Shown one piece after another: positions 4,428 to 22,971 of a DNA stretch of 64,000 nucleotides (position 1 is the first letter of the stretch; the number at the start of each line of letters is the position of its first letter). This DNA comes from Chlamydoabsidia padenii (Eukaryota > Mucoromycota > Mucoromycetes > Mucorales > Cunninghamellaceae). Location of the stretch: assembly GCA_025330725.1 (NCBI GenBank), contig JAIWND010000022.1, forward strand, positions 434,001 through 498,000, in the 5' to 3' direction. Under the pieces are notes generated by a model that was not told where the DNA came from, ran no database searches, and worked only from the letters and a program-made list of their open reading frames with translations. The translations under genes were made by a program, and so were the position numbers.

Positions 4428-6315
4428 ATGGAAACCATGTCATGCTCTTACTATATCAACGACAATTACAAGATTCACTCTGCAGGACACTACAAAAAGA
4501 AGAACAGTCGATCTAAATCTATGTTTGAATGGTCTCTATCAATGGACAACAGTATTATCTCTTCACCCAAGGTGACTCCAACATCAAGGCTGCCTCTCGT
4601 AGATCGACTCGGACAAGAAGACTCCTTGCCTCCCAGCGAATCATATACACACAACGACAAGATATCATCACCACACTCTGATTGCGCAGGGTCAAGAATC
4701 CCTCATCATCCACATTTAACAAAGCTTCTACAGTATCAAGTGAACGATAACAGCAACCATGACAATGAACCGTTTTTATGCACCATGCCACTCCGCAACA
4801 ACTTTGCCATACAACATGCTCAACGATTTCTGACTCGATTCGTCGAGGCATTTGTCTCATCAGGCGCACCTTCTCATCGACTGGACTACTGCACCCATCT
4901 TCTCTTACGCAAATGGAATATATCAGCACAATTTGGTTACTTTCCCGGGTTTCTGATCATCTCGTTTGATAATCCATATGGTAAGTAAAACTAGGTAGGA
5001 TGACTGCATGAATCACTCACACAAAACTCATCTCTTATTATATACAGTAGACACCTTCCCTACTCGTGTGCAACTGGTCAAAACGGATACCAATTTGGAC
5101 ATCAATCGATTGATTGGGATATATCAGGTCTTTGAAAGTATCATGACGGACGAAATGACCATACAAGAAGCAACACATCAATTGAATCATGTCACACGGG
5201 CGCCCCGATTATACTCAAATTGGACAGTAATCATTGCCTACGGGGCTGCATCAAGCACAAGTATGCCATTGTTTTTTTACGGTGGATTAATGGACATGGC
5301 CTTTGGTTTTGGACTCGGGATTATTGTGGCGATCGGATCAATCTATGTGTCTCGACGAATCACTCGGTTTACCAGCATCTTTGATGTCCTCCAATGTGCT
5401 CTGGTGGGATTCTTGGCGGCAACAGCATCCTCACGTCTATCATCTACCAATGTCTGTTTTTATGCGTTATCGGTAGGCGGAGTGGTCAATCTCTTGCCAG
5501 GATACTCAACTCTCGTGTCCATGTTGGAGATTGCGTCTGGGACAGTGGCATCAGGTACCTTAAGACTGACCACGACATTGGTGTATTCGCTACTACTTGG
5601 GTTTGGTCTCGCTATTGGTGCCAGCACTCATCAACTACTCTTCCCCGGTCTGGCGCTGATTTCATCCAATTCCTCCTGTGAAGACACCTTGCCATCCTGG
5701 ACTCATCTTGTTTTTGTGCCGATATTTGCCATTGCCAACGCCATTGTGTTGCGTGCTCATCAAAGGAAATTTGGTATCATGATTCTTCTCGCCATCCTCT
5801 CACACGGTGTTCATTATGTGGCTCTGATCTACTTTGTCAATTATCCTCACTTGGCCACCGTCCTTGCTGCTTTTGTTGTTGCTATGGTATCCAACATTTA
5901 TGCTCGAATCCAACCTACTGTTGGCTTTGTGGATATGATCACTGGGTTATTCTTTTTGGTACCTGGATCGGTGGGAGTGTCTTCTTCCTTGGATACTTTT
6001 GGTCATGCTCTCTCTAATGCCGCATCATCACCTCGGCCATCGAATAACAATGCGGTCTCGGAGATGTCGATTATTCTCAATGCTGGTCAACAAGGGATTT
6101 TATTTGCGGTGCATATCATGGTCATCACTGTCTCTGTCTCTATCGGTTTAGTGCTTGCTGCTCTTGTTATCTATCCGATCCGAAAATTACTCGAATACAA
6201 CGACAATCGAAAGGTGCCTATTGTTCATTCCTCCACGACAGCAAGATACTCAACTTCTTTGAAAACAAATTCCAGGTACCGAAGAAGAGACTGGATAGGC
6301 GAAGTTACCTTTTGA
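4428..6315 (+). CDS. ThrE/PRM10-family transporter (DUF1212)
   Basis: Two exons (4428-4980 and 5048-6315; GTAAGT...ACAG) give about 606 aa. The N-terminal ~100 residues are hydrophilic. The ThrE cytosolic domain follows, recognisable by VSSGAPSHRLDYC, then FPGFLIISFDN across the intron, and TRVQLVKTDTNLDINR. Two blocks of membrane helices follow: GGLMDMAFGFGLGIIVAIG through SVGGVVNLLPG, and a second half containing GLFFLVPGSVGVSSS. This is the arrangement of fungal pheromone-regulated membrane protein 10 and bacterial threonine exporters. The fungal substrate is not established. A stop codon lies in frame just upstream, and a second in-frame ATG at 4437 is a possible alternative start. AATAAA-like signals follow at about 6440. 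Confidence 0.9.
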
Positions 6316-8094: not shown

Positions 8095-9242
8095 CTAAAA
8101 GAGGGTCGGATAGCCAGGTGTCAAGGTTTGCTGACAAAGGGAAGGCAAAGTAGTGCTTCGTTGGACGCCTTGTGGTTGCCGCATTTGTAGTAGATAATCC
8201 TGTTGAAGTTGATACAATCGAATCCTTTCCCATTCCAGCCTGAGTTGCTGTTGCTGTATATATAATAACTGCTGTTGGTGCTGGTAATACTGATGATGAT
8301 GATGATGATGAGAATGATGATGATGTGATGGTGGATTGAGTCTTTTCAAGTCAGGTTCACTTGTCATTGATTTGAGTCCATGTGTAAAGTGTTGATGGTG
8401 GTGTTGTTGTTGTTTCTTCTTGTGCTTGAAAGTGACGCCGATAATATCATCGTCTTCCCTACTTGATATCGATCCATCATTAGTTGTACTACTACTGGAG
8501 GAGGAGGACGGACATGAATCGATGGGTTGATTCAAGTGTTTGGGCTTGGTCAAAGTATGTGGTGACATCAAACGAGGATACATGTTGTTGGTATGTCGCA
8601 TCGTTTGGAATTTGACTTGTTGTCGATGTCGATCCTTCATTCGATCCAAGATATTGTTTTGCTGACATGCCATACTTCGATCGAGTTTTTTACGATTGCT
8701 GTTGGGTCGATGGTGTCGTTCCATGATCGGGTATAGTTCCTTGTTGGTGGTAATCAGATCATTATCATCGTCATCATTACCATTGTCTTCGTCTTCGTCC
8801 TCTGATACATCCGAGTCTAAATTGGTAGGTATCGATGGTAAGAAGGGTTCATTTGTGGGAGTAGATAGGACTGTGTTGTGTGAATTGGGTGATATTGACG
8901 GAGAGTCCAGTTGAGTTGGTGTCATGTTCGTATCAGTATCTAGAGTGGTAGAATTTTTTTTTTATAAAAAAAAAGTGTGTGAGATTTAGTAAGATGTAAG
9001 AAAGTCATAATATGTTTTAATGTACCTTGAATTGTTGGTAGTGATTGTGTCGGTAGTGATTGCCCAAGTTCCATAAAGATGTCGTCAAAGAAACTCGTAC
9101 CAGCCGAAGGATCTGTCCATGAATTAACTTGAGATGATAAAGCATAATCGTCGGGTTTTGCCTTGGTTGACGATGGAGGTTGCTCCGATGATTTGTAAAG
9201 TCCTTTGAAACTAAGACTTGGGAGTCTTTTGAGTAAACCCAT
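8095..9242 (-). CDS. Uncharacterised low-complexity protein (His/Gln/Ser/Asp-rich)
   Basis: Two exons (9242-9026 and 8939-8095) join in frame across a GTACAT...TCTAG intron and give about 353 aa. The N-terminus is MGLLKRLPSLSFKGLYKSSE, followed by a patterned segment with GTSFFDDIFMELGQSLP. The middle is Ser/Pro-rich with an acidic run (SDVSEDEDEDNGNDDDDN). Then come basic stretches (RHHRPNSNRKKLDRS), His tracts and a C-terminal Gln-rich part (LRLEWERIRLYQLQQDYLLQ) that could form a short coiled coil. No known domain is seen. The composition suggests a disordered regulatory or adaptor protein. Splicing is well supported because both sides keep the frame. Confidence 0.7.
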
Positions 9243-10033: not shown

Positions 10034-13000
10034 CTATGTAGAATCATCACCAGAGTCTTCGTCATCGTCCGTAGCATCATTTTCATCACTTTCATTGTCG
10101 GTACCATCGTCAGTATCATCTTCATGATATGATTCATCGCCACTATCGATCTCCATTGTGTAATTGTTGATTTCATTTCCATTGTTATTGTCTTTAATGC
10201 CACTTGGTTTAGGAGTCCAATGTTGATATAGTTTCGCATGAGATAATGACGTGTGTTGAAGTTTGCATTGTCGCCCATCCCGGCAGTTTACCAGATTGAA
10301 GAAGGGATACTTGTTGTTGTCAGTGTTGGAATAGGTTTGTTGAAGTTGTTGTAATTCCTCGGTGAGCATCATTGTAACCATCTTGCTTGCACATCTTCCA
10401 CATACTTGACTTGTAGCTTCAATATCAAGAGGGAGAGACCAATCTTGTAAAGCTTTATCTAAAAAAAAAAAGGGTGGGGGAGAGGAGGAGGAGGAGGAGG
10501 AGGAGGTTCGATTAGTAACTGAGTATTGTTTCTGTTTCCCATATCCTACTTACTTGAGTTTTGATTCTTTAAAAAGTCAGGGAGTTTTTCATCGAAGAAT
10601 TGCTTTGGTGTTTTTCCAATATCTTGTAGATACATGTCGAAGATTTGTTGTTCAAAAGAGTTGACCTTGTCCCAAGCTACTGATTCGAGTTTCTGGTCTT
10701 TCAAACTTTCAAGACATTTTCGTGTGGTGCGGCTTTGGCAAAGGAAGCAGTAATCATTGTGTCGGACCAAAACCATATAACGAATCTTGACGCGGGCTTC
10801 ATCATGGACAATATATTCATTGTATGTTGTTCTTGAGTCATAGAAGGTGGTTTCTGTTTCAGGTGATTCTAATTTGACAGAAGGTCCCATTGGAATCATG
10901 ACCTGGAATAATATATATAAATAAATAAAAAGTAAGTACATGTCAAATATTTAAATCCCGCCTTGCATGAATTACCCCATTGATATCGTAGATAGAGTTT
11001 GACAGGTTAGGCCCTTCTTTTCCAACACCCTTGATAGATGTATACCCTTTATCTTCCTTGTATTGAGTGTACTTGTAGAATGTGTTTGGAGTCAGCGGGC
11101 ATTCGTCACCCAGCGCCACTTCACAGAGCAATAAAAGTCCATAAGCAGGATTATTGTTTCCGTAAATGTTCGTTGCAAAGTGGACAGATTTACAAAACAT
11201 GTCAGCAAAGTATATACCATTTCCAAACAATGATCCCTGTAAATAGAAATAGACAATGTTAGTATACTCTAGTTCTGTGGTCTTTCCCACTTTGCTTTTT
11301 TTTTTTCTTCTTTTTACCGATTCGTTCGCAGTGGATGGTTTGGAACGAAGTCCTTGATTCAGAATACCCATAAAGTTACCAAGTTGAGACCCATGCCAAA
11401 GTAGTTTTCTATTTGGTTCAGTAGCAAATGGCTTGAAGCGTTCTTTTTCTTGATCACGATCCACCGAGAAGAGATGAGCGATTTCATAGCCAGAGTCATT
11501 GGAAGTGCTTGACATATATTTGGACACCACATTGAATTCCCGAGAATCAGGATTGATTTCAGCCAACTGACAACCAAGAGACCGATAAGAGTAGTCAAAG
11601 GGATTGATTTCTTTCGCACGATGCTTGGCAGCCAGGACCACGTTCAGAGTAAAGTTGATATATCGAGCATCGTTCAATCTTGAGTTTTCCTTAACCAAAG
11701 CATTGTCGGTTAAGATGGGTTGGAGACCCCTTTTATCATTAGGGTTGTAGGTGGGCATCAATCGATAATATCGGCTGCTTTCTTGAATGGCGATATGGAT
11801 AAGTTCTGTGATAATAATAATAATAATAATAAAAGGTCAAGTTAGATACTGTGATTCTTTTCCAATGTATGTTCTTTTTAATTACCTTTTCTGCGAGCTC
11901 TTTGTTCAGAGTTCCCTTGGTGATGATTGTATTCTTTCAACTTGTCAACGATGGTGCGTAGTCGACCTAGAATGGCAGTTGCTTCACGGAGTGAGTCAGG
12001 GGGGACTTGGCCAATAGGAATGTCCAATTTGATGTTCTTGTAAGCATTTTTGAGAGTCTTGAAGTTACAAAATAGCTTCATGGTGTTGTGTAGGTTGTTG
12101 GGCAGTTGTGTGGGTTGGATTTCGTTGTGGATAAAGTTAAGATTGACATTGTCAAGAATAGCATCCTTGATAGGGTCTCGAGCCTTGATAAGTTGATAGC
12201 GTCCAGGCTTCTCCACAAAGTTATCGCGATGATCTTCCCAGTTATTCCCCGTTTTCGACTTGAAGATTGACTTGAATTCGGTGACAGCTTCTTCTTGTGT
12301 GAGATATGGTGTTTTTTGATGCATCCCTTCAACATCGCCAAAAGCGCCCCATCGAGTCCAAAGCACATAAAGATCCAAGAGCTTGTTATATATCACCGAC
12401 ATCTTGTAGAACCTATTCATTACAGAATCATGTTAGTATGCTTATGCCATGTAAGTATTTCTAAAGCATCTTTTTTTTTTTTTTTTTTGACTTACATGTT
12501 ACTGCTGTGTAGATAAGAAGCAACTTCCACCTTCATGATCATAATATCATAAGGTTCGCCTTGATCGAATACCATAGTACCAATCTTTTCCAATTTTGAG
12601 TAAGGGTCAATCACAGCCTTGTTGTCTTCTGTTGTTGGTTGAGCAGTTGTTTTCTTCTTGCGAGATTCCAAAAGCTTTTGTAGTGCCACACGTTCAGTCT
12701 CCGCATCCTTTTCCACAGTTTCGAGAGGTATTTGTTCCACATCCATTCGATCATCAAAAGTATTGTCATTGTCATTCATTTCTGTATCCATCAAAACAGG
12801 TTGGGCACCATATCGAATCAAAGCATCATAATGATCTTTTCTATTTTGCAAAAGGGCAACATGTGTAGGCCGGTTTTCTAAAATAAAGTTATGATCAGTA
12901 CTCTTTTTTTTTTTTAACTAGTACTAAAAGACTTACCACTGTGATCGGGGATTTCAACCACTTTCTTGTAAAGAGATTCACCGATATGTCCCACCAAATA

Positions 13001-16000
13001 GTCGAGGATTGAAGTGTTCTTGTAACCATAATTATCATTTATATTTACAACACGTGAGAATATGGTGCGTCCGTTGGAGTCGACAGTTGTCCAGTCAATG
13101 TCATGTTGAGTTGCTTCACAGACAGTTTTGAGAATATACAAATCATCATTAAGGACACAATGGAAAATGGCATTGACAGTATCATTGTAAAGATCAGTAG
13201 GTTCTATTTTCTTCTTGCAGCTTTTGATGTTAGGATTAGCACCAAGAGCAAGTAAGCGCTTTTTTCAACGAAAGGAGAGAAAAAAAAAAGTCAGTTCATG
13301 CAGTATTATGTTTTGTTTTGTATAGACTTACATCAACCAGAGCGATATCATGATTTCGAATGGCAACTTCCAGGGGCACCATACCAGTTTCTTCGTCTAC
13401 GATATTGACATTAGGACCAGGACTATGTTTGATCATCATTTCGTAGATGGCATCCTAGTGTAACAAAAGTATCAGTACAAAGTTGATTACCTTCAAAATC
13501 ATGACACTTACCTTGTATGACAATGTCTCCTTTTCAAAGAAGATGCTGTAAAATGCTGATCTGTTAGAATGATCATCCTTTGTGTCCACGTTGGCACCAT
13601 GTTCTAGTAAGAGCTAGATAATCATAATCAAAGAAAAATGGTTAGTGACAAAGATATTGTAAAGAGAAGGAATGTGTTTTCTTTCTTTTCTTTTCTTTTC
13701 TTTTTACCTTCACATTATCTGTTCGATCATTGCAAATGTTAAACATCAGACACGATCTACCATCCTCCACATTTTGATCCTTGGGTCCAATAACATTCGT
13801 GTTTGCCGATGCATTCAGAAGAATCTATATGATTTGATACGAGAGGGTTAATATATATGCATGATTTCTTTCTTTTCAAGCTTACCTTTAGGATTTCGTT
13901 AGATTTATGGATTGAGCCCACAAATATAGGAGAGGTTATCGTAGAATACAGTTTACCGCGTTTACGTCGAGTAATACAGGAAGACTTGTCGACATTTGCA
14001 CCAGCATTCACCAAAACCTAATCATAATACAGCTGTTAACACCTTGACATATCTACAATTAATCATACTTACTTGAAGGATATCAGCCCTTTCTTTGACA
14101 CAAGCCGCCATAACCGAGTTTTGTCTTCCATAATCACTATCCGTGTCTAGATCAGCCCCATGTTGTAAGAGGAGTTTGACCATTTCCAGATTATCATTGT
14201 ATATAGCTTGAAGAAGGACGGATGGCTTTGTCTTGTGGCTCCCGGCTGTCAAGGGCAAACCAGCATCCAATAGCATCTAAAAGGAAGGTGTGATTATCAA
14301 GTCATTAGTTTATCAGGTTAAAGTTGTGTTGTTCACTTGTCTTACCTTGACGCAGTTTATATTATTGGAGAAAACTGCTGCCCACACCTGAGATTGCGAG
14401 TGAGTGGCGTCGTATGTGCATTGAGGTCGAGGATCCAATGTGAGCAAGTGTTTCACCATCGTCTCTTGACCATTGAGAGCAGCATAATAAAGTGGCGAGC
14501 AGTTGTTTTTGTCAAGAGTGAATTCCAAGTCGAGTAGTTCCAATCTTTCCAGGAAATCGGGCAAATAGTCGTTCCACATATCACTAATAAAGATGCAAGC
14601 ATATAAAAAAGGGGGAGGGGGTGAGTGCCATGCAATAATCATGTCAAGTAGTTGGGTACATTATTTCTATTGATCCACTTACACATCAAAAGGGGTAAAG
14701 TTGCTGATTACATGCCACAAGTTTTGATTGGTCTGTGCAATCGTACCTTTCAGTACCAAATCACTAGCGTTCCGAAGAAGAGTGTGTGCAAAATGGAATT
14801 TACCTAGAATCAAAAAGAAGGGGGATGAGTAAAGACAGTTGTTTCATTTTAGCATATTAGTCTTACCCTTGATCAAAGAGTCAGATAAGGAATCTATAGA
14901 TAAAAAAAGGTTGGTTAGTTCATCAAATGTTTGTTTACCCAATCAGTCTTTACTTAAGACAGTTTCGGTGTTGGACATAAAGAGGTAGCTGACATTCATG
15001 TAGGAGTGAGACAGGCTGTAGCTGATAGCAGAATCCTTGTGACCATCAGGGAAAACAATATCGGAATCATTACCACCACGATTGTGTATCATCACCGCCA
15101 TGTTGGAATGACCATACCGTAATGCCAATTGTACTCCGCCATTCTATAAAAAGTATAACAAAAAAAAAAGTTAAAGGATCATATCTTCTTTTTATTGTTA
15201 TTATTATCAAAGCGACTTACGGTATCATAATCTTTAGTGTTGACATCAATCTTGCCCGAGTCTAGCATCATGTTCACACATGAAATGGCATCCACAATGA
15301 CAGCATAATGTAGTGGTGTACGGCCAAAAGAGTCCATCAAATCGAGTTCAATCCCAGGAGTGTCCACCAGATCCTTCAGCATGTCCACAGGGTCAAATGG
15401 TGCGATTTGAGAATCTTGTTCAAATGTATAATCCAAGTACTTGACTAGTGTTACTCGATCATGATCTGTCAGTTTGGTCGCCTCATCGTCCTCCGAGTTG
15501 TTTTTAGTTTCACAAGCCTTGAGTAGTTTTTCTTGTTCCACCGCCATTCGTTTGTGTTGCTCCAACCAGGCATCTAAATCGTCATTAACCTGACCATATT
15601 TCTCCACATACTGCTTGATCGTATTTTCTTCTAATTTGGCCAGAGTTTGTTCCGCAATCAGAGCTTTCACCTTTTTGTAAGTTAAATCCGTAGTTTTCAT
15701 TCGAGGTACGACATGTAATCCAGTAAAGATAATATGTAAGGGAGTTCGATCTATCCAATGGAAGGAAAACAAAGGGAGAGAGGTCAGTAAAAGGATATGT
15801 TGTGTCAGATTAGTTATGTCTTACCAAATATATCCTTGGCGTTGATATTCGCACCAGCTTGAAGAAGTAAGCGTTCTACCCGCATGGATCGATTGGTTTG
15901 ATTCTTTGACAATTGGATGGCCCAGTGCAATGGTGTTTGGTACATTTTATCAACAAGATTTGGAGATGCCTTTTGTTTCAAAAGAAGACGGACGAGGGCG

Positions 16001-17341
16001 ATCTTTTCGGATTTGACAGCATAATGGAGAGCGGAGCTACCAGTACCAGATTCTTGAGCATCGGGATTTGCACCAGCACAAAGGAGAGCTTCCACCACGT
16101 CAATGGATTTGGATTTGATTGCTTCAAAAAGAGGATTCTTGTCACCTGTTGCATTATTCGGGTCTGCTTGATATTCCAGAAGAGTACGGGCACCATCCAG
16201 AGCACCTTTAGAAGCAGTCAATGACAAAGGGGTATTATGTTGATGATCCATTGCATTTACGCAATTCTTGATATCTACCGAGCTGTTCACAGTAAAGTCG
16301 TTTCCTAGGCGGGCCAGATAGATTTTGAGTGCCATCGGACTTCCCATTTTGCATACAACAATCAAAGGTGTTTCTCCATCTAGACCCAAATATGATAACA
16401 GAAACAAAAAGTAAGTTACCTAATCATTGATACAAGTTAATAAAACCCTACCTTCATTTGTAGCCATATGATTCAAAGGAGTTTGAGACAATTGAAGAAG
16501 AGATTCCACCAAAGGGTAGTAACCAAGACGCAGGATTTTCATCAATACCGTATCGCCATTTTCAAAAGTTGCATTGACGTTAGCGCCAGCGGAAAGTAAA
16601 TGAGTGACAGCCGTCGTGTCCACCTTTTCCTTGTCATTGGCTGCTTTATACTCAGTTTCATAAGCCGAGAAAGCAATCATCAATGCAGTCGCGTTTGATG
16701 CATCGCAATTGTTGATTCCCCCAAAGTCACCATAAGATTGGATGAGAGAGTTACACATTATTTGCACCGCCTTCCCGTCGAGCGCCATTGCAGCTTTCAT
16801 CAAAGCCGAAGTACCTTTTCCATCAGGGAGACAAGGATTAGCACCGTACTTGATAAATATGTCCAAGGAGTCGTACCGGTCGTTTTCAAAGGATGGCATG
16901 ACAATGTCAAAGAGCTTGTGAATACGTTCTTGAGCAATGGTGGTGTTCCCGGAGAGATAGAGGGAGCTGTCATTCCATCGCGTAAAGTAGCAGTAAACCA
17001 AGGGTGGCATTCCACTACCATGAATTGTCTTTTGCGCTTGTTGATTAGGATCAGCACCATGGGAAAGTAAAAAGTCCAGCAAAGGTACATGCTGGGTATA
17101 AGCGACTATAGAATGAATGAATATATTGGTTAGTAATGGGTCACTTTTTCTTTTCATTTTGTCAACTACATACCTAGTTGGAGCACACTACATCCTGTTT
17201 CCCGAGGGTAGTCATCAGGTTTGGCCTTGGGATTTTTCTTGAGATAGCCCTTGGGCAGCTTGACCACAACATTAATATCTGGTTTAAAGTGATCCAACAA
17301 CTTTTTGGCGTAAATAAACTAGAAGAGAGAGAGAGTATGTT

Positions 17342-17378
<37 letters not shown>

Positions 17379-20300
17379 ATTTATTGGGCGGACTTACAAA
17401 ATGATCAAATTTGAATACAAAGCGCATTGGTCGGCGGATTTCAGTTGCTGTGTCTTCGGTGGTAAGGCGATGATGATATCTTGAAGAAGAGCTTTCCTTC
17501 ACAATTTCCTTTTCCTTGGCAATGTATTCTTTTTGCATCTTGATAGCTTCCAAGATACCATACAAAAGTGCTGTATATCCTTGATTGTTAACGTGATTGA
17601 TCTATTACAAAACTGAGTAAGTACATACATAATCCATAATATCCCTCTTCACCTGATTCTTCCTTACCTTAATTTCGCCGACTTGATCAGCAGGTACAGG
17701 ATTAGCTTGGATGGTATCCCAGATGGAAGAGATAGATTCCACATAACGAGATTGAATGATGTCGAGTTTATCCCAAGTGATCTCGCCCTTTTCGTCCAAT
17801 CGCACATTATCCAACTGAGCTGTACCATATAAGAGACCATGGAAAAAGGTATTACCATTGTTATCCACGTCACTCCAGTACTTGGCACCCTGTTCGATTA
17901 ATAAAGCCACCATGTGAAAGTTTTGACTAGCCATAGCAAGAGCAAGAGGAGTATTCTTGGATACATTGACAGCATTGATATCGGCACCGGCATCCAAAAT
18001 AAGACGGACCACCCTTTGTTGATATTCGATGCAAACTTGATCATCAGCTAGAAAGCCAGAAGTCTTGGACCTTTTCAGAAGATGCTTGTTATAGTAATTT
18101 GCCATCATCAACGAATGCAAAACGGTATTTCCTAATAGTAAATAAAAAAAATGTGTTTAGTCTGAGATGTATTCCCAAAGATTGTTTTTAGTATTACCAT
18201 CAATTGTAGCAGCATTCACATTTGCATTCTTGTCCAAAAGCACTTGAATACGGCGCAGATTTTGATCGATTTCGCTGGTGTTGGTGACTTTTTCCACGAC
18301 TGCATGATGTAGCATTGTAAATCCATCTTGATCCTTGAAATCCACATTGACACGACCACCCGGCAGAGACAAGAGATACTGGACAATAGCAATATGACCT
18401 TTCAAATTGGCCACGGAACAAGGAGTAGATCGCCACACGTTGTTGGAGGAGGGGTCGGCGGATCCAAATTCCACCAATAGTTTCAAAACTTCCATATGAC
18501 CAAACGCGCAGGCATAGTGAGCAGGTGTGTTGTTAGAAGAGTCATGAGCATCCGCATCCAAACCTTGCACCAAAAGGTACTTGGCGACCTCGTAATGTCC
18601 TGTCATACAAGCCAAATGTAATGGTGATCTGGTAAACTTGTCCACCAAGTGCAAACCGGCACAGCCATGCTCCACCAATGTCTTTACACAATCCAAATGA
18701 CCACGGTGAGAAGCAAGTATTAGAGGAGTCGCCTTTTGAGTAGATTCCACAGCATCCACAGTAGCACCACAATCGATTAGTTCTTTACACGCTTCGGCAT
18801 GACCAAACGCAGCAGCATAGTGAAGAGGACGACGTCGGTTCCGAAGTAAAGTATGATCAGCGAATTCGGTGCAAGGGAAGTGGTCGTTCGAGAGATATTT
18901 GAGTAAAGGTCGAATGTTCTTATATCGGCCAAAACGAGCAGCTTGTACCAATGGAGTCAATCGATATTTATCGCCTTGAGAGAAGTTGTAGTTTTGAGAG
19001 ATCAAGTATTCCAAACAATCGGGTGTTGAGCTAGCAGCGGCATAATGAGCTACCGTCCGAACAAGATCATCCGTTTCCACACGTTCTGCAGCATCCAGTT
19101 GTTCGAATAGACGAGTCAAGTGAGAAGCAGAAGGGTTGATGGCAGCACACAAGAATGGCGAGATGTTGTAGGTATAGGTCGCTTTCTTGAGGATTTGATT
19201 TTTACGGTGAGAAGGCAAGTCCTGGTTCTATAAATAGAGTACATACATAATATCGTGTTAGTATCTCTTTTTCCTTCCGATTTAATTAATCTGTGGCTTA
19301 CCAGTAACACAGCATGATGGAGCATATTGTACCCACTTGCTTCCTTCACGTCGTCCATCAATTTGACAGATAAATTAATATTTCCAGAGGCAACAACATG
19401 ATAGACGAAATCACCACCAGTACCGAATTGATGCAGGCAGTTGATTACCGATGACTGTTCGATTAATGGAGAGTGTAGCAGAGAGAGGTATTCGTCCATA
19501 TTATCGGGATGGCACTTGTAGTCCAAATTGAAGTCTTCATAAGAAGCAGTACGATAAAATGCAGAATTGCCTTGTCGATTACCCCTAGATTCATTCACCT
19601 GCCTATTAAAAAAGAAGAAGTTTTATTAGTATCTTCCTAGCAGATTTCAGTCCCCCCCTCCCCTTTTTTTTTTTTTTTCTTTTCGTAATCAGGATCCTTA
19701 CTTGACAGCATGACCAAAAGTGTATCGACTAACATATCCAGTATTGCTTCCATAAGTGGTGATACTTTTAGAGAGTTGTATGCGTTTGACCTTCTTGTCT
19801 TCTTTCAAAAGTTCCACCACAGTACTATTACCCAGAGAGAGAGCCAATTTCAGCACATTGTCTTCAAGCACGCCACGGTCCTCCAGAGTCCAGGAAGGGT
19901 AAGTCTTGGTTTGTTCCAAAAGTGTTTTCAGTTGAGGCAAGTCATTGTTGATGATAGCTTGTCGATAGGCCTTGATAGAGCAGCGCAGACAGCAAGAGAT
20001 GGTTTCCACAGAAGAATGGTCGTGATCTTGCCATGGATGAGTGTCAAGCCAAAGAGCACGGTCGTTCTTGCGTTGTTTAATGAGATCCAATTGAAGTTTG
20101 ATGAGAGCTTTGCCGCGAGCGGTGAGAGAGGTCGTTTTTTTCTTGTTGGTTGAGGCTCCACTTCGTTTGCGTTTCTTCATATATCTGGGTTCAGAGTCAC
20201 TATCGTCACTATCAAGAATCCAAGTTGACGCTTCTGTTGTTGTAGTAGTGGGTTCCATCAATCGTAACATGGCACGGGTCTTTGATGTACGTCCAGGTCG

Positions 20301-20877
20301 TCTTGTTGTTACATCCACCTTGTTTACAGTCGAATCAATAGCGTTGAATTCACCTGTTGTTGAAGTTGAAGCTTCGCTGATATTGTTGGTTCCATTAGTA
20401 GAGTAGCCAGTAGAGGTGAAGACACGTTCATTAAAGGTAGTAAGAATGTCCAAGGATTCAATCATGTCTTCAGTTTCCCAAGTATCTTCATGTTGTTCCA
20501 GTTCACCACGTTGGACAAGATAAAGTGTTTTGCCCTGCAAGTGTGCATCATTAAAATAAAATTAAAAAAAAGTAGCGGAAAGAAAAGCAAAAGAAGTAAA
20601 AATGGTAAGCGCATTATTTGAAGTGAGTAGTCGGGTTTTGAATTTAAAAGTTTAAAATCAACTCACGTTCAACTGTTTGAAATCTCGAATAGATTTAGCT
20701 GGCTTCTTTTCAGTCATCTTCTTGATTGATGATCGTTGAGAAGCAGGTTTTTTGATGGGGCTTGTTGTGGTATTGATCACTGGAGTGGACTATATAAAGA
20801 AAAGGTGAGAAAGGGGATTTAATCAGAGTGGGTGACTTTACAGTTGAGCGAAGAGATCTACGATTTGCTTTGGTCAT
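10034..20877 (-). CDS. Giant ankyrin-repeat/WGR/PARP protein (tankyrase-like poly(ADP-ribose) polymerase)
   Basis: About 27 exons with short GT-AG introns code for roughly 3,000 aa. The start is MTKANRRSLRST at 20877. A basic, Ser/Thr-rich N-terminus (19.7-20.9 kb) is followed by a very long ankyrin array (about 12.9-19.6 kb), with many repeats of the type TPLALA, GADINA and SPLHLACMTGHYEVAKYLL. Next comes a WGR domain (about 12.2-12.6 kb; RWGAFGDVEG, then GNNWEDHRDNFVEKPGRYQLI). A PARP regulatory segment contains IPIGQVPPDSLREA (11.9-12.1 kb), and the ART catalytic domain follows. The catalytic triad is complete: His in LWHGS (~11,394), Tyr in GNGIYFAD (~11,211) and Glu in YNEYIV (~10,818). 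A tail of about 210 aa with CFLC, CGRC and an acidic end closes the protein. The order ankyrin-WGR-PRD-ART recalls nematode tankyrase PME-5. PARylation activity is inferred from the intact H-Y-E triad; the cellular role is unknown. Confidence 0.88.
10745..11610 (-). other. PARP (ART) catalytic domain within the giant gene
   Basis: This domain segment spans the exons from RSLGCQLAEINPDS through the fold core: RKLLWHGSQLGNFMGIL, LFGNGIYFADMFCKS, YGLLLLCEVALG and NEYIVHDEARVKIRYMVLV. The His, Tyr and Glu of the triad are all present. One intron with a Lys/Ser-rich boundary (about 11,235-11,318) falls after the Tyr motif exon, and another (about 10,902-10,975) falls before the Glu exon. Confidence 0.9.
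12180..12600 (-). other. WGR domain within the giant PARP gene
   Basis: The domain runs across the intron at about 12.42-12.50 kb. It starts with PYDIMIMKVEV, continues with FYKMSVIYNKLLDLYVLWTRWG and ends FVEKPGRYQLI. The name-giving Trp-Gly-Arg is Trp-Gly-Ala here (RWGAFGDVEG). In DNA-damage PARPs WGR binds DNA ends and activates catalysis, which is inference for this protein. Confidence 0.8.
17345..17375 (+). repeat. Poly-A (31) inside a PARP intron
   Basis: A homopolymer of 31 A on the plus strand (poly-T on the coding strand) sits inside an intron, forming the polypyrimidine side near the acceptor. It is probably length-variable. Confidence 0.9.
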
Positions 20878-21646: not shown

Positions 21647-22971
21647 CTAAATATCACGGACAATAGATTCAACAGGAGCGTTTTCGTATACAATACGGTA
21701 AACCGTGTTGAATAGAGGGAATTCGGCGGTCATCTTGCGAGCAGACAAGAATTCGTGGACTTCAGCAGCACTGAGGGTTCCTTGAAGTTTTTGACCATTG
21801 AGCAATTCCTTTTCCAAAACGTCGATAGGTTTACCAGTAGTGACAAAGGCTTCAGCGACCTTTCTGTTACGACCCCCTGAGCAAGTAGTAATCAAATCAG
21901 CCACACCACAAGATTCAAAGAAGGTTTCAGTTTGCACCATATCACCGAAAAACATTTGTCCAAACTTGCGCATTTCCACTAATCCACGACGAATGATGGC
22001 AGCCTTGGTGTTGCTTCCATAGCCCAAACCATCAGTAAAACCAGCACCGACTATAAAATAAAATAAAAAGTGTGTGAGTTTTTATCAACATATTCAATAA
22101 CGCGCACCTATGATGTGATCCCCCCCCATTCCTTTTTATATATATAGATGACTTACCGGCAACAACGTTTTTGAGAGCACCACACAATTGCACACCAACA
22201 GAATCTTGGATGACATTGATACGGAAGTATTCGGTATCAAAGAGATGATGGAAGAGTTGACCATCTTGGACATTAGGGCAACCAATGGTAGATTCACAGA
22301 ACTTTTCTTTGGCAACTTCATCAGCAATGTTAGCTATATAAGTAATATAAAAAAGAGAGAAGGAGGGGGGGACATCAGTAAAGTGATCATCTTTTTTTTT
22401 TTTATTTTATCTATACTTACCACCAGACAAAGCGGCACAGGGGATGCCCAAGATACGTTCGATTTCTTCAGAGAAGAGACGGACACCAGAGGAAGTGATT
22501 TCGAGACCCTTGATCAAAGAGATAGCACGAGCATTAGGAGCCAAGTGACCCTTCATTTGTTCACAGACACCACGGACGAATTGATGAGGTACGACAAAGA
22601 CGACCAAACTAGCACCTTTACAAGCATTGACCACATCAGGGACAGCAACAATGTTTTCAGGAAGCTTGATACCTTGAAGATACTTGACGTTTTCATGTTC
22701 CCGGTTGATAATGTCGGTCAAGTTTTCGCCATTCACCTTTTCTTCAAAGACCCATTGACGGACAGTGTTTTCAAAGAGATTACCATGATGTTGAGTGTTG
22801 GTACCGATTAACTTGGCGACAGCGCTTCCCCTAAAAATGAGAACAAGAGAGAGTTAGTAAAGGGATCTATTATTGTCATTATTTACCCTATTCCTTATCA
22901 TTCCCTCCCCATTGTTTATAAATACATTACCAGTTACCAGATCCAATGATGCAGACTTTTTCGAGAGACAT
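21647..22971 (-). CDS. GPD1: Glycerol-3-phosphate dehydrogenase, NAD(+)-dependent
   Basis: The enzyme reduces dihydroxyacetone phosphate to glycerol-3-phosphate with NADH, feeding glycerolipid and glycerol synthesis and cytosolic redox balance. Four exons with three introns code for about 350 aa. The start is [14 protein letters not shown], and splicing completes the NAD-binding motif [14 protein letters not shown]. Further hallmarks are the [25 protein letters not shown] block, [17 protein letters not shown], and the substrate/catalytic stretch [20 protein letters not shown] with its Lys. [15 protein letters not shown] and [20 protein letters not shown] follow. The end is VESIVRDI. There is no obvious peroxisomal or mitochondrial signal, so the enzyme is inferred to be cytosolic. 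Length and motifs are normal for the family. Confidence 0.96.

What the first reader, a model, noticed from the sequence alone, without database searches (positions are those of the whole stretch)
10034..20877. Giant tankyrase-like PARP: long ankyrin array, WGR, PRD and intact catalytic triad in a fungus
Seen: about 27 small exons on one strand give one continuous series of ankyrin repeats, then WGR, then a PARP regulatory segment, then ART with His (LWHGS), Tyr (GIYFAD) and Glu (YNEYIV). Known: vertebrate tankyrases have ankyrin-SAM-PARP without WGR, while nematode PME-5 combines ankyrin with WGR. Inference: a fungal PARP that couples DNA-end sensing (WGR) to a very large client-binding scaffold. 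It may be a lineage-specific family with unknown clients.
Basis: partly seen in the sequence, partly recalled or inferred. Interest (0 to 1): 0.8.

Follow-up and report, generated by a model that had tools for sequence, protein, structure and literature searches.

The report
Fungal PARP with built-in PAR reader
This is one very large fungal enzyme of a known ankyrin-containing PARP family; its fungal members also carry the poly(ADP-ribose)-binding module of the human checkpoint protein CHFR and lack the arginine that human PARPs need to respond to DNA breaks, features I did not find described for them.

Summary
One minus-strand gene of 27 exons (20877..10034) encodes 2960 aa, identical letter for letter to an NCBI protein of Chlamydoabsidia padenii (Mucorales). 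It has at least 26 ankyrin repeats, WGR, PARP regulatory domain and an intact H-Y-E catalytic domain, and is the only PARP and only WGR gene found in its genome. The basic architecture is known ('Clade 1A' PARPs: fungi, amoebae, ciliates and, here, many animals). It is neither lineage-specific nor a tankyrase.

Best reading: a chromatin-associated PARP that reads its own product. In this species both reader pockets look eroded. Function is inferred.

The parts
10034..20877 (-). Whole coding region, 27 exons, 2960 aa (ankyrin-type Clade 1 PARP)
   Evidence: Gene model; identical to P0001, Chlamydoabsidia padenii
20424..20687 (-). Chromodomain-like segment, residues 47-90 (exons 2-3)
   Evidence: Pfam Chromo 16.7 bits in the whole protein, 20.4 in the N-terminal piece, both under the 25.1 cut-off; profile of 13 fungal N-termini, some of them clear chromodomains, hits MPP8 at E 2.1e-14; the 50 listed PDB matches of the model are all chromodomains, best E 9.3e-3
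19554..19592 (-). Conserved ESRGNRQGNSAFY motif, residues 335-347, before the ankyrin array
   Evidence: Family consensus in fungi and a related form in non-fungal members
13223..19334 (-). Ankyrin region, residues 421-2055, at least 26 repeats in several blocks
   Evidence: Local HMM; Pfam Ank families
12223..12548 (-). WGR domain, residues 2261-2341; signature reads W2299-G-A2301 instead of W-G-R
   Evidence: Pfam E 1.7e-13; motif comparison; coordinates
11585..12108 (-). PARP regulatory (helical) domain, residues 2380-2527
   Evidence: Pfam PARP_reg E 1.4e-9
10762..11545 (-). PARP catalytic domain, residues 2541-2750; His2591, Tyr2625, Glu2732
   Evidence: Pfam E 1.1e-46; WGR-PRD-ART part matches PARP1 structures, best E 3e-52
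10364..10749 (-). CHFR-type cysteine-rich domain (zf-CRD), residues 2755-2851, C2755-x2-C2758 and C2839-x2-C2842
   Evidence: Pfam zf-CRD 22.5 bits in the whole protein (under the cut-off 26.3), 29.1 in the isolated tail (over it)
10220..10285 (-). PAR-binding zinc finger (PBZ), residues 2878-2899: C2878, C2884, H2893, H2899 kept; aromatic before Gly replaced by Asp
   Evidence: Alignment A4; Pfam's own PBZ model does not match this protein
10037..10147 (-). Acidic C-terminal tail, residues 2924-2960 (20 of 37 residues Asp or Glu)
   Evidence: similar acidic ends in many fungal members

Best explanation
Shown: this is the only PARP found in Chlamydoabsidia padenii, a member of the ancient ankyrin-type Clade 1 (Clade 1A), and it belongs to a fungal branch in which the ankyrin-WGR-PRD-ART core has a CHFR-type CRD-PBZ directly after the catalytic domain, lacks the WGR arginine and, in many members, carries a chromodomain-like N-terminus. 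Inferred mechanism: a chromatin-associated poly(ADP-ribose) polymerase that reads its own product. The ankyrin array holds client proteins, WGR and the N-terminal fold contribute to docking on DNA or chromatin, the H-Y-E active site makes PAR on itself and its clients, and the CRD-PBZ binds the nascent PAR in cis or on neighbours, so the enzyme is retained and activity spreads where PAR already is. Human CHFR binds PARylated PARP1 in trans through the same zinc finger; here it is fused in cis. Because the WGR arginine is gone, activation probably depends less on the PARP1-3 break-to-active-site relay and more on PAR feedback or chromatin. In this species the PBZ and the chromodomain have lost pocket residues, so PAR reading may be weak here and is better tested in Mucor, Basidiobolus or chytrid relatives.
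Against: No activity, localisation or binding data exist here. In this very protein the PBZ has Asp where 27 of the 30 fungal members with the motif have Tyr, Trp or Phe, Pfam's PBZ model does not match it, and the chromodomain lacks Trp and Tyr of the methyl-lysine cage (cage positions recalled), so both readers may be weak or dead in C. padenii. 13 of 43 fungal rows lack the full PBZ pattern; several of these models are cut short, but P0012 and P0016 look truly degenerate. The tail match is partial in several rows (P0011, P0121, P0122, P0126). Against a lost break relay: the WGR Trp (41 of 42) and the PRD are kept; the other relay residue, the WGR-HD contact Asn (N567 of PARP1), is Asn in 28 of 42 fungal rows including this one, more often than in the animal ankyrin PARPs (3 of 11); and R591A PARP1 in cells only moderately lowers XRCC1 foci (PMC7515702, passages). 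The profile and model evidence for the chromodomain leans on clearer relatives in the same alignment.
Confidence: 0.55

Rival explanations
1. It is a DNA-break-activated repair PARP, doing the job of PARP1 and PARP2 in a genome in which no other PARP was found; the ankyrins recruit repair factors and the tail is a minor add-on.
For: Sole PARP and sole WGR gene found; a 60-residue stretch of WGR is the most conserved in the Mucorales alignment A1; the WGR Trp that contacts the DNA end is kept in 41 of 42 and the WGR-HD contact Asn in 28 of 42; PRD present; best structure matches are PARP1; R591A PARP1 keeps much of its behaviour in cells; PME-5 has a proposed DNA-damage role (PMC4245714).
Against: WGR Arg lost in 42 of 42 fungal members, and that loss abolishes DNA-dependent activity in PARP1, 2 and 3 in vitro.
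Confidence: 0.3
2. It works like a tankyrase: the ankyrin array binds peptide motifs in clients, which are PARylated for turnover, without a role at DNA.
For: At least 26 ankyrin repeats; HYE triad intact.
Against: No SAM domain; WGR and PRD present; no tankyrase among the 51 distinct PDB sequences matched under E 0.001, which are PARP1, 2, 3 and 4; [quoted passage not shown]
Confidence: 0.1
3. In this species the C- and N-terminal reader modules are vestigial: folded zinc-binding or structural elements that no longer bind PAR or methyl-lysine.
For: Among the 30 fungal rows with the PBZ pattern the aromatic is replaced in P0001-P0003 only; chromodomain score under the Pfam cut-off.
Against: All four PBZ zinc ligands and both CxxC pairs kept; the fold is predicted with confidence; the CRD part of CHFR may supply binding contacts of its own (not checked).
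Confidence: 0.3

Closest known systems
Clade 1A PARPs (ankyrin + WGR + PRD + PARP; Dictyostelium, Paramecium, fungi; Citarelli 2010, PMC2964712)
   Same: Same domain order and HYE triad; same side of the tree as Paramecium, Pelomyxa and animal ankyrin PARPs.
   Different: Fungal members add a CHFR-type CRD-PBZ and, in many, a chromodomain-like N-terminus, and lack the WGR arginine. In the section and passages of that paper seen here none of these is described for this family.
C. elegans PME-5
   Same: Ankyrin repeats with a Clade 1-like PARP (as described in PMC2964712 and PMC4245714).
   Different: No PME-5 sequence was compared here; of 17 non-fungal relatives in which the catalytic-Glu motif was located, 16 end 22-30 residues after it, and none of the 196 other proteins has the tail.
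Human CHFR C-terminal cysteine-rich domain with PBZ (PDB 2XOC, 2XOY, 2XOZ, 2XP0)
   Different: Fused behind a PARP catalytic domain instead of behind FHA and RING (CHFR layout recalled); only the C-terminal part of the CHFR domain is matched; PBZ aromatic missing in this species.
Tankyrases (Clade 4)
   Same: Long ankyrin array and PARP domain with an intact triad.
   Different: No SAM; WGR and PRD present.
PBZ-bearing PARPs in Dictyostelium, Entamoeba, Filasterea and lancelet (mentioned in PMC4245714)
   Same: PBZ and PARP domain in one protein: that combination as such is not new.
   Different: Not compared in sequence here; that passage mentions no CHFR-type CRD, and says of fungi that the motif could not be found.

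Membership tests
Clade 1A ankyrin-type PARP | Ankyrin repeats N-terminal to the PARP core | tested here: met
[quoted passage not shown]
Clade 1A ankyrin-type PARP | HYE catalytic triad | tested here: met
   His2591, Tyr2625, Glu2732
Clade 1A ankyrin-type PARP | Groups with ciliate and amoebozoan ankyrin PARPs, apart from PARP1, PARP2, plant and fungal BRCT PARPs | tested here: met
   82-row WGR-PRD-ART tree: 66 ankyrin-type rows against 16 others, SH-aLRT 100; quick search, no bootstrap, rooted on the 16; no PARP3, tankyrase, PME-5 or Dictyostelium row
Tankyrase (Clade 4) | SAM domain between ankyrins and PARP | tested here: not met
   No SAM in Pfam scans of this protein up to E 0.05
Tankyrase (Clade 4) | ART domain groups with tankyrases | not tested
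   No tankyrase row was in the tree
DNA-dependent PARP (PARP1-3 type) | WGR tryptophan | tested here: met
   W2299; 41 of 42 fungal rows
DNA-dependent PARP (PARP1-3 type) | WGR arginine needed for break-dependent activation in vitro | tested here: not met
   A2301; 0 of 42 fungal rows
DNA-dependent PARP (PARP1-3 type) | WGR asparagine that contacts the HD (PARP1 N567) | tested here: met
   Asn in this protein and in 28 of 42 fungal rows
DNA-dependent PARP (PARP1-3 type) | Activity stimulated by DNA breaks | not testable with these tools
   Needs purified protein
CHFR-type CRD-PBZ module | Sequence profile match to CHFR CRD | tested here: met
   E 5.7e-16 with the family profile; single-sequence Pfam zf-CRD 29.1 bits on the tail against cut-off 26.3, but 22.5 in the whole protein
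CHFR-type CRD-PBZ module | Fold | tested here: met
CHFR-type CRD-PBZ module | PBZ zinc ligands C-x5-C and H-x5-H | tested here: met
   C2878, C2884, H2893, H2899
CHFR-type CRD-PBZ module | Aromatic residue before the PBZ glycine (consensus recalled) | tested here: not met
   Asp in this protein; aromatic in 27 of the 30 fungal rows with the pattern
CHFR-type CRD-PBZ module | Match of this protein to Pfam's PBZ model (zf-CCHH) | tested here: not met
   No match in this protein up to E 0.05, or up to E 5 for the isolated tail; 6 of 17 and 6 of 18 fungal members match
CHFR-type CRD-PBZ module | Binds poly(ADP-ribose) | not testable with these tools
   Needs protein
Chromodomain | Profile and fold of the family's N-terminal segment | tested here: met
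   MPP8 E 2.1e-14 with a 13-row profile; the 50 listed of 556 matches of the window's own model are all chromodomains, best E 9.3e-3, none under 0.001
Chromodomain | Pfam cut-off reached by the window's own sequence | tested here: not met
   16.7 and 20.4 bits against 25.1
Chromodomain | Aromatic cage (positions recalled) | tested here: inconclusive
   Trp and Tyr of the cage align by eye with Arg and Leu in this protein; kept in the Endogone member P0024

The most novel reading that the evidence does not exclude
On the stem of the fungi, the ankyrin-type PARP exchanged the break-triggered WGR relay for a product-triggered one: the WGR arginine went, a CHFR-type CRD-PBZ was fused directly behind the active site, and a chromodomain was placed at the other end. 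Early-branching fungi would then have a PARP switched and kept in place by its own poly(ADP-ribose) and by chromatin marks, a writer and two readers in one chain and, in C. padenii, the only PARP found in the genome. This would be the in-cis counterpart of the CHFR-PARP1 partnership that human cells carry out in trans. (Probability set at 0.3 rather than 0.35 after weighing the kept WGR-HD asparagine and the cell data on R591A, which I had first left out.)
Probability: 0.3. Interest if true: 0.8.

Novelty: new variant of a known kind. Interest (0 to 1): 0.62.

Why it matters
It joins a PAR writer to the PAR-binding module of the CHFR checkpoint protein in one polypeptide across many fungi, a group for which a 2014 survey reported that PBZ could not be found (PMC4245714; a PBZ in Mortierella DNA ligase E has since been reported, PMC10665377; PBZ-PARP combinations are known from amoebae, Filasterea and lancelet). 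It also supplies a natural experiment on PARP allostery: a whole clade with an intact active site that lacks the arginine whose mutation silences DNA-dependent activity in human PARP1, 2 and 3 in vitro. And it gives a simple system, one PARP found and no PARG found (by a search whose control did not ring), in which to ask what PAR does in a fungus.

Tried and rejected
Two genes instead of one: rejected on open exons 22 and 26, on identity with the NCBI protein and on long relatives with the same layout. Lineage-specific family: rejected. Tankyrase: rejected (no SAM). Origin of the module: a search for other proteins of about 380-1200 aa that carry the CRD-PBZ, with the tail of a chytrid member (P0027), gave 931 candidates and none at E <= 0.01; it also failed to return P0123 and P0125 (914 and 934 aa), which have the tail and are of fitting length, so the search was too insensitive to mean anything; the donor and the presence of a CHFR with a CRD in fungi stay open. 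PARG: none found in the own genome, but the control rang nowhere, so absence is not shown; PMC4245714 found no obvious PARG in Mucor circinelloides and Rhizopus delemar. PBZ elsewhere in the own genome: two matches under the cut-off only, and the search did not find this gene's own divergent PBZ either; the zf-CRD search likewise missed this gene's own domain, which is split by an intron, so neither shows absence. The PARP and WGR searches of the genome are six-frame, exon by exon, and score only the best candidates. ADP-ribosylglycohydrolase-type matches (two loci) and macrodomain matches (two loci) were found; the one tested matches archaeal MJ1187 and human ARH3 only weakly (4.1e-5, 5.6e-5). 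HPF1 could not be searched. In the structural second look no protein other than CHFR came near; a family not listed there is not excluded.

Choices behind the counts: the 17 tails of A4 were picked from members that already showed the PBZ pattern, so invariance of the zinc ligands in A4 is partly by choice; the fairer counts are 42 of 43 (tail profile, partial matches included, 17 of the 43 being its source rows, E-values for a file of 239 proteins) and 30 of 43 (full PBZ pattern). The 43 are the proteins named as fungal and of the ankyrin type or its clade (P0001-P0036, P0047, P0121-P0126); the 196 others are the rest of the 239 proteins listed in those calls, some unnamed. Pfam scans at E <= 0.05: zf-CRD in 12 of 17 and 12 of 18 fungal members, PBZ 6 of 17 and 6 of 18, Chromo 4 of 17 and 4 of 18; none of the three in 18 non-fungal members, which were chosen by hand from the 83 proteins not named as fungal. 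P0031 was dropped from the fungal set and P0040 from the other to meet a size limit. The tree has 42 fungal rows (P0047 left out) and 40 others chosen by hand. One search found 175 proteins and listed 120; one search found 1499 and listed 120; the unlisted ones were not examined. Organism names are as the sources wrote them; calling these fungi early-branching is recalled.

Literature: 'not found described' rests on the searches, 106 of an open-licence library only. PMC2964712: section 7 read, and passages; PMC4245714, PMC8529158, PMC4081085, PMC7515702, PMC4741567, PMC10665377, PMC6264785: passages only. Two look-ups for structure papers on the APLF PBZ and the CHFR CRD found nothing held (the second identifier was from memory).
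Full report
WHAT IS THERE. The gene lies on the minus strand, 20877 to 10034. A dynamic-programming gene model, with four exon edges then set by eye, gives 27 exons, GT..AG introns of 52-132 nt and a 2960-residue protein. This protein is identical, letter for letter, to an NCBI protein of Chlamydoabsidia padenii (P0001), whose contig is as long as the window's contig (597356). The species is a Mucoromycota, Mucorales, Cunninghamellaceae.

DOMAINS. Pfam finds ankyrin families, WGR (2261-2341), PARP_reg (2380-2527) and PARP (2541-2750) over their cut-offs, and zf-CRD (2755-2851) just under it in the whole protein and over it in the isolated tail. At least 26 ankyrin repeats lie between 421 and 2055, in blocks with gaps. 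His2591, Tyr2625 and Glu2732 form the triad. In the own genome, no other PARP catalytic domain and no other WGR domain was found, in six-frame searches that score only the best candidates.

ONE GENE. Exon 22 runs in one open frame from a stretch that looks ankyrin-like by eye into the start of the WGR domain, and exon 26 holds the catalytic Glu and the first CxxC of the C-terminal module. The identical public annotation and the long relatives of the same layout (most of the 36 best fungal matches are 2,400-3,700 aa) make a split gene unlikely. RNA evidence was not available.

FAMILY. Citarelli et al. 2010 (section 7 read) defined Clade 1A as the Clade 1 PARPs with ankyrin repeats besides WGR, PRD and catalytic domains, found in Dictyostelium, fungi and Paramecium; they also wrote that Rhizopus oryzae and Mucor circinelloides have Clade 1 PARPs and Phycomyces blakesleeanus none (passages). 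Here a protein named as P. blakesleeanus has the full layout (P0010, 2668 aa). A tree of the WGR-PRD-ART part (82 hand-chosen rows, 503 columns, IQ-TREE quick search, no bootstrap) puts 66 ankyrin-type rows from fungi, animals, ciliates, other protists and metagenomes on one side of a branch with SH-aLRT 100, apart from 16 PARP1, PARP2, plant and fungal BRCT rows; the 42 fungal rows form one clade (98) and the 11 animal rows another (100). So the family is old and widespread, not peculiar to this lineage.

THE N-TERMINUS. Pfam sees a chromodomain clearly in the Endogone member (P0024, 42.6 bits, cut-off 25.1) and only weakly in the window's protein (16.7 in the whole protein, 20.4 in the piece). 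A profile of 13 fungal N-termini hits the MPP8 chromodomain at 2.1e-14 and then CBX and HP1 proteins. The model of the window's own segment (pLDDT 79.1) matches only chromodomains in the 50 rows listed, best E 9.3e-3, none under 0.001. Of 17 fungal members with more than 200 residues before the RGNR motif, 13 match a chromodomain-like HMM at E < 1e-5; that HMM was seeded with seven of them. Profile and model both lean on the clearer relatives in the alignment.

THE WGR ARGININE. In an alignment of 82 proteins the third WGR letter is Arg in 38 of 40 non-fungal or classical rows and in 0 of 42 fungal ankyrin-type rows; the Trp is kept in 41 of 42. In human PARP1, R591A leaves DNA affinity unchanged but eliminates DNA-dependent activity; in PARP2 and PARP3 the matching changes cut DNA affinity to about a quarter and abolish DNA-dependent activity without affecting DNA-independent activity (PMC4081085, passages). 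Two results pull the other way: the WGR asparagine that contacts the HD (PARP1 N567), also essential in that paper, is Asn in this protein and in 28 of 42 fungal rows, but in only 3 of 11 animal ankyrin rows; and in cells R591A PARP1 only moderately lowers XRCC1 foci, though it exchanges faster (PMC7515702, passages).

HOW IT MOST LIKELY WORKS. Inference: the enzyme is held at chromatin by WGR and the N-terminal fold, carries clients on its ankyrins, makes PAR, and binds PAR with the CRD-PBZ placed just behind the active site. In human cells CHFR binds PARylated PARP1 through its PBZ, and C623A/C629A abolishes this (PMC4741567, passages); the fungal protein has the same pair of parts in one chain. 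The likely results are retention on PAR and local spreading, a product-feedback logic that fits the loss of the WGR arginine. Only the parts list is shown; binding, activation and location are not.

AGAINST IT. In this species the PBZ residue before the glycine is Asp (Asn in Absidia cylindrospora, Lys in one Cunninghamella echinulata protein; aromatic in the 27 other rows with the pattern). The finger spans 22 residues here; 21, 22 and 26 all occur in the family, so that length is not odd in itself. Pfam's PBZ model does not match this protein. The chromodomain's cage residues (recalled) are Arg and Leu. The readers may have decayed in this small group while the folds stay. A second lineage (P0012, P0016) also has a degenerate finger.

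LITERATURE AND NOVELTY. Perina et al. 2014 state that PBZ distribution follows PARPs except in Fungi, where the motif could not be found, and mention PBZ in PARPs of Dictyostelium, Entamoeba, Filasterea and lancelet (passages); so a PBZ on a PARP is not new as such. A 2023 paper reports a PBZ in Mortierella DNA ligase E (passages), so PBZ in fungi as such is no longer new either. The searches named under Tried and rejected found no report of a CHFR-type CRD-PBZ or a chromodomain on fungal ankyrin PARPs, nor of the arginine loss; the library is open-licence only. I file it as a new variant of a known kind.

VERDICT. The finding is real, correctly placed and partly known.

Noticed in passing
G000 contig C30 (L004, L005), C2 (L006), C12 (L007), C33 (L008, L009): Two macrodomain loci and two ADP-ribosylglycohydrolase-type loci: candidate erasers in a genome where no PARG was found (control did not ring).
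   Followed up: partly
P0010 (relative, Phycomyces blakesleeanus, 2668 aa): A complete ankyrin PARP in a species that Citarelli 2010 listed as having no PARP.
   Followed up: no
P0012 (Cunninghamella echinulata) and P0016 (Halteromyces radiatus): A second lineage of the family in some relatives, with a finger lacking the PBZ glycine; C. echinulata records hold both types (P0003, P0012).
   Followed up: no
window 19592-19554: Motif ESRGNRQGNSAFY just before the ankyrin array, conserved in fungi and, as RGxKEGNNAF, in animals and protists; function unknown.
   Followed up: no
WGR domain of animal ankyrin PARPs (rows of the tree): The WGR-HD contact asparagine (PARP1 N567) is Tyr in 8 of 11 animal ankyrin rows, so animal members may also have a changed relay, by another residue.
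   Followed up: no
P0044, P0051, P0065-P0068 and similar (metagenome proteins): Ankyrin-WGR-PARPs of about 3,750-3,840 aa from unnamed organisms on contigs of about 11.6-11.9 kb, larger than the window's.
   Followed up: no
P0005 and P0028: Public models that also hold a CAF1 ribonuclease or a She9/Mdm33 domain: probably merged neighbouring genes (assigned by the precomputed Pfam lists).
   Followed up: no
P0063 and one more row of A6: An AXH domain in 2 of 18 non-fungal ankyrin PARPs (P0063 by its precomputed Pfam list).
   Followed up: no
window about 21650-22850, minus strand: NAD-dependent glycerol-3-phosphate dehydrogenase gene directly upstream of the PARP gene (Pfam).
   Followed up: partly
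window 4999-6315, plus strand: ThrE-type threonine/serine exporter-like membrane protein (Pfam).
   Followed up: partly
window 8095-8961, minus strand: Open frame of 288 aa rich in His, Gln and Ser with no Pfam match, downstream of the PARP gene.
   Followed up: no
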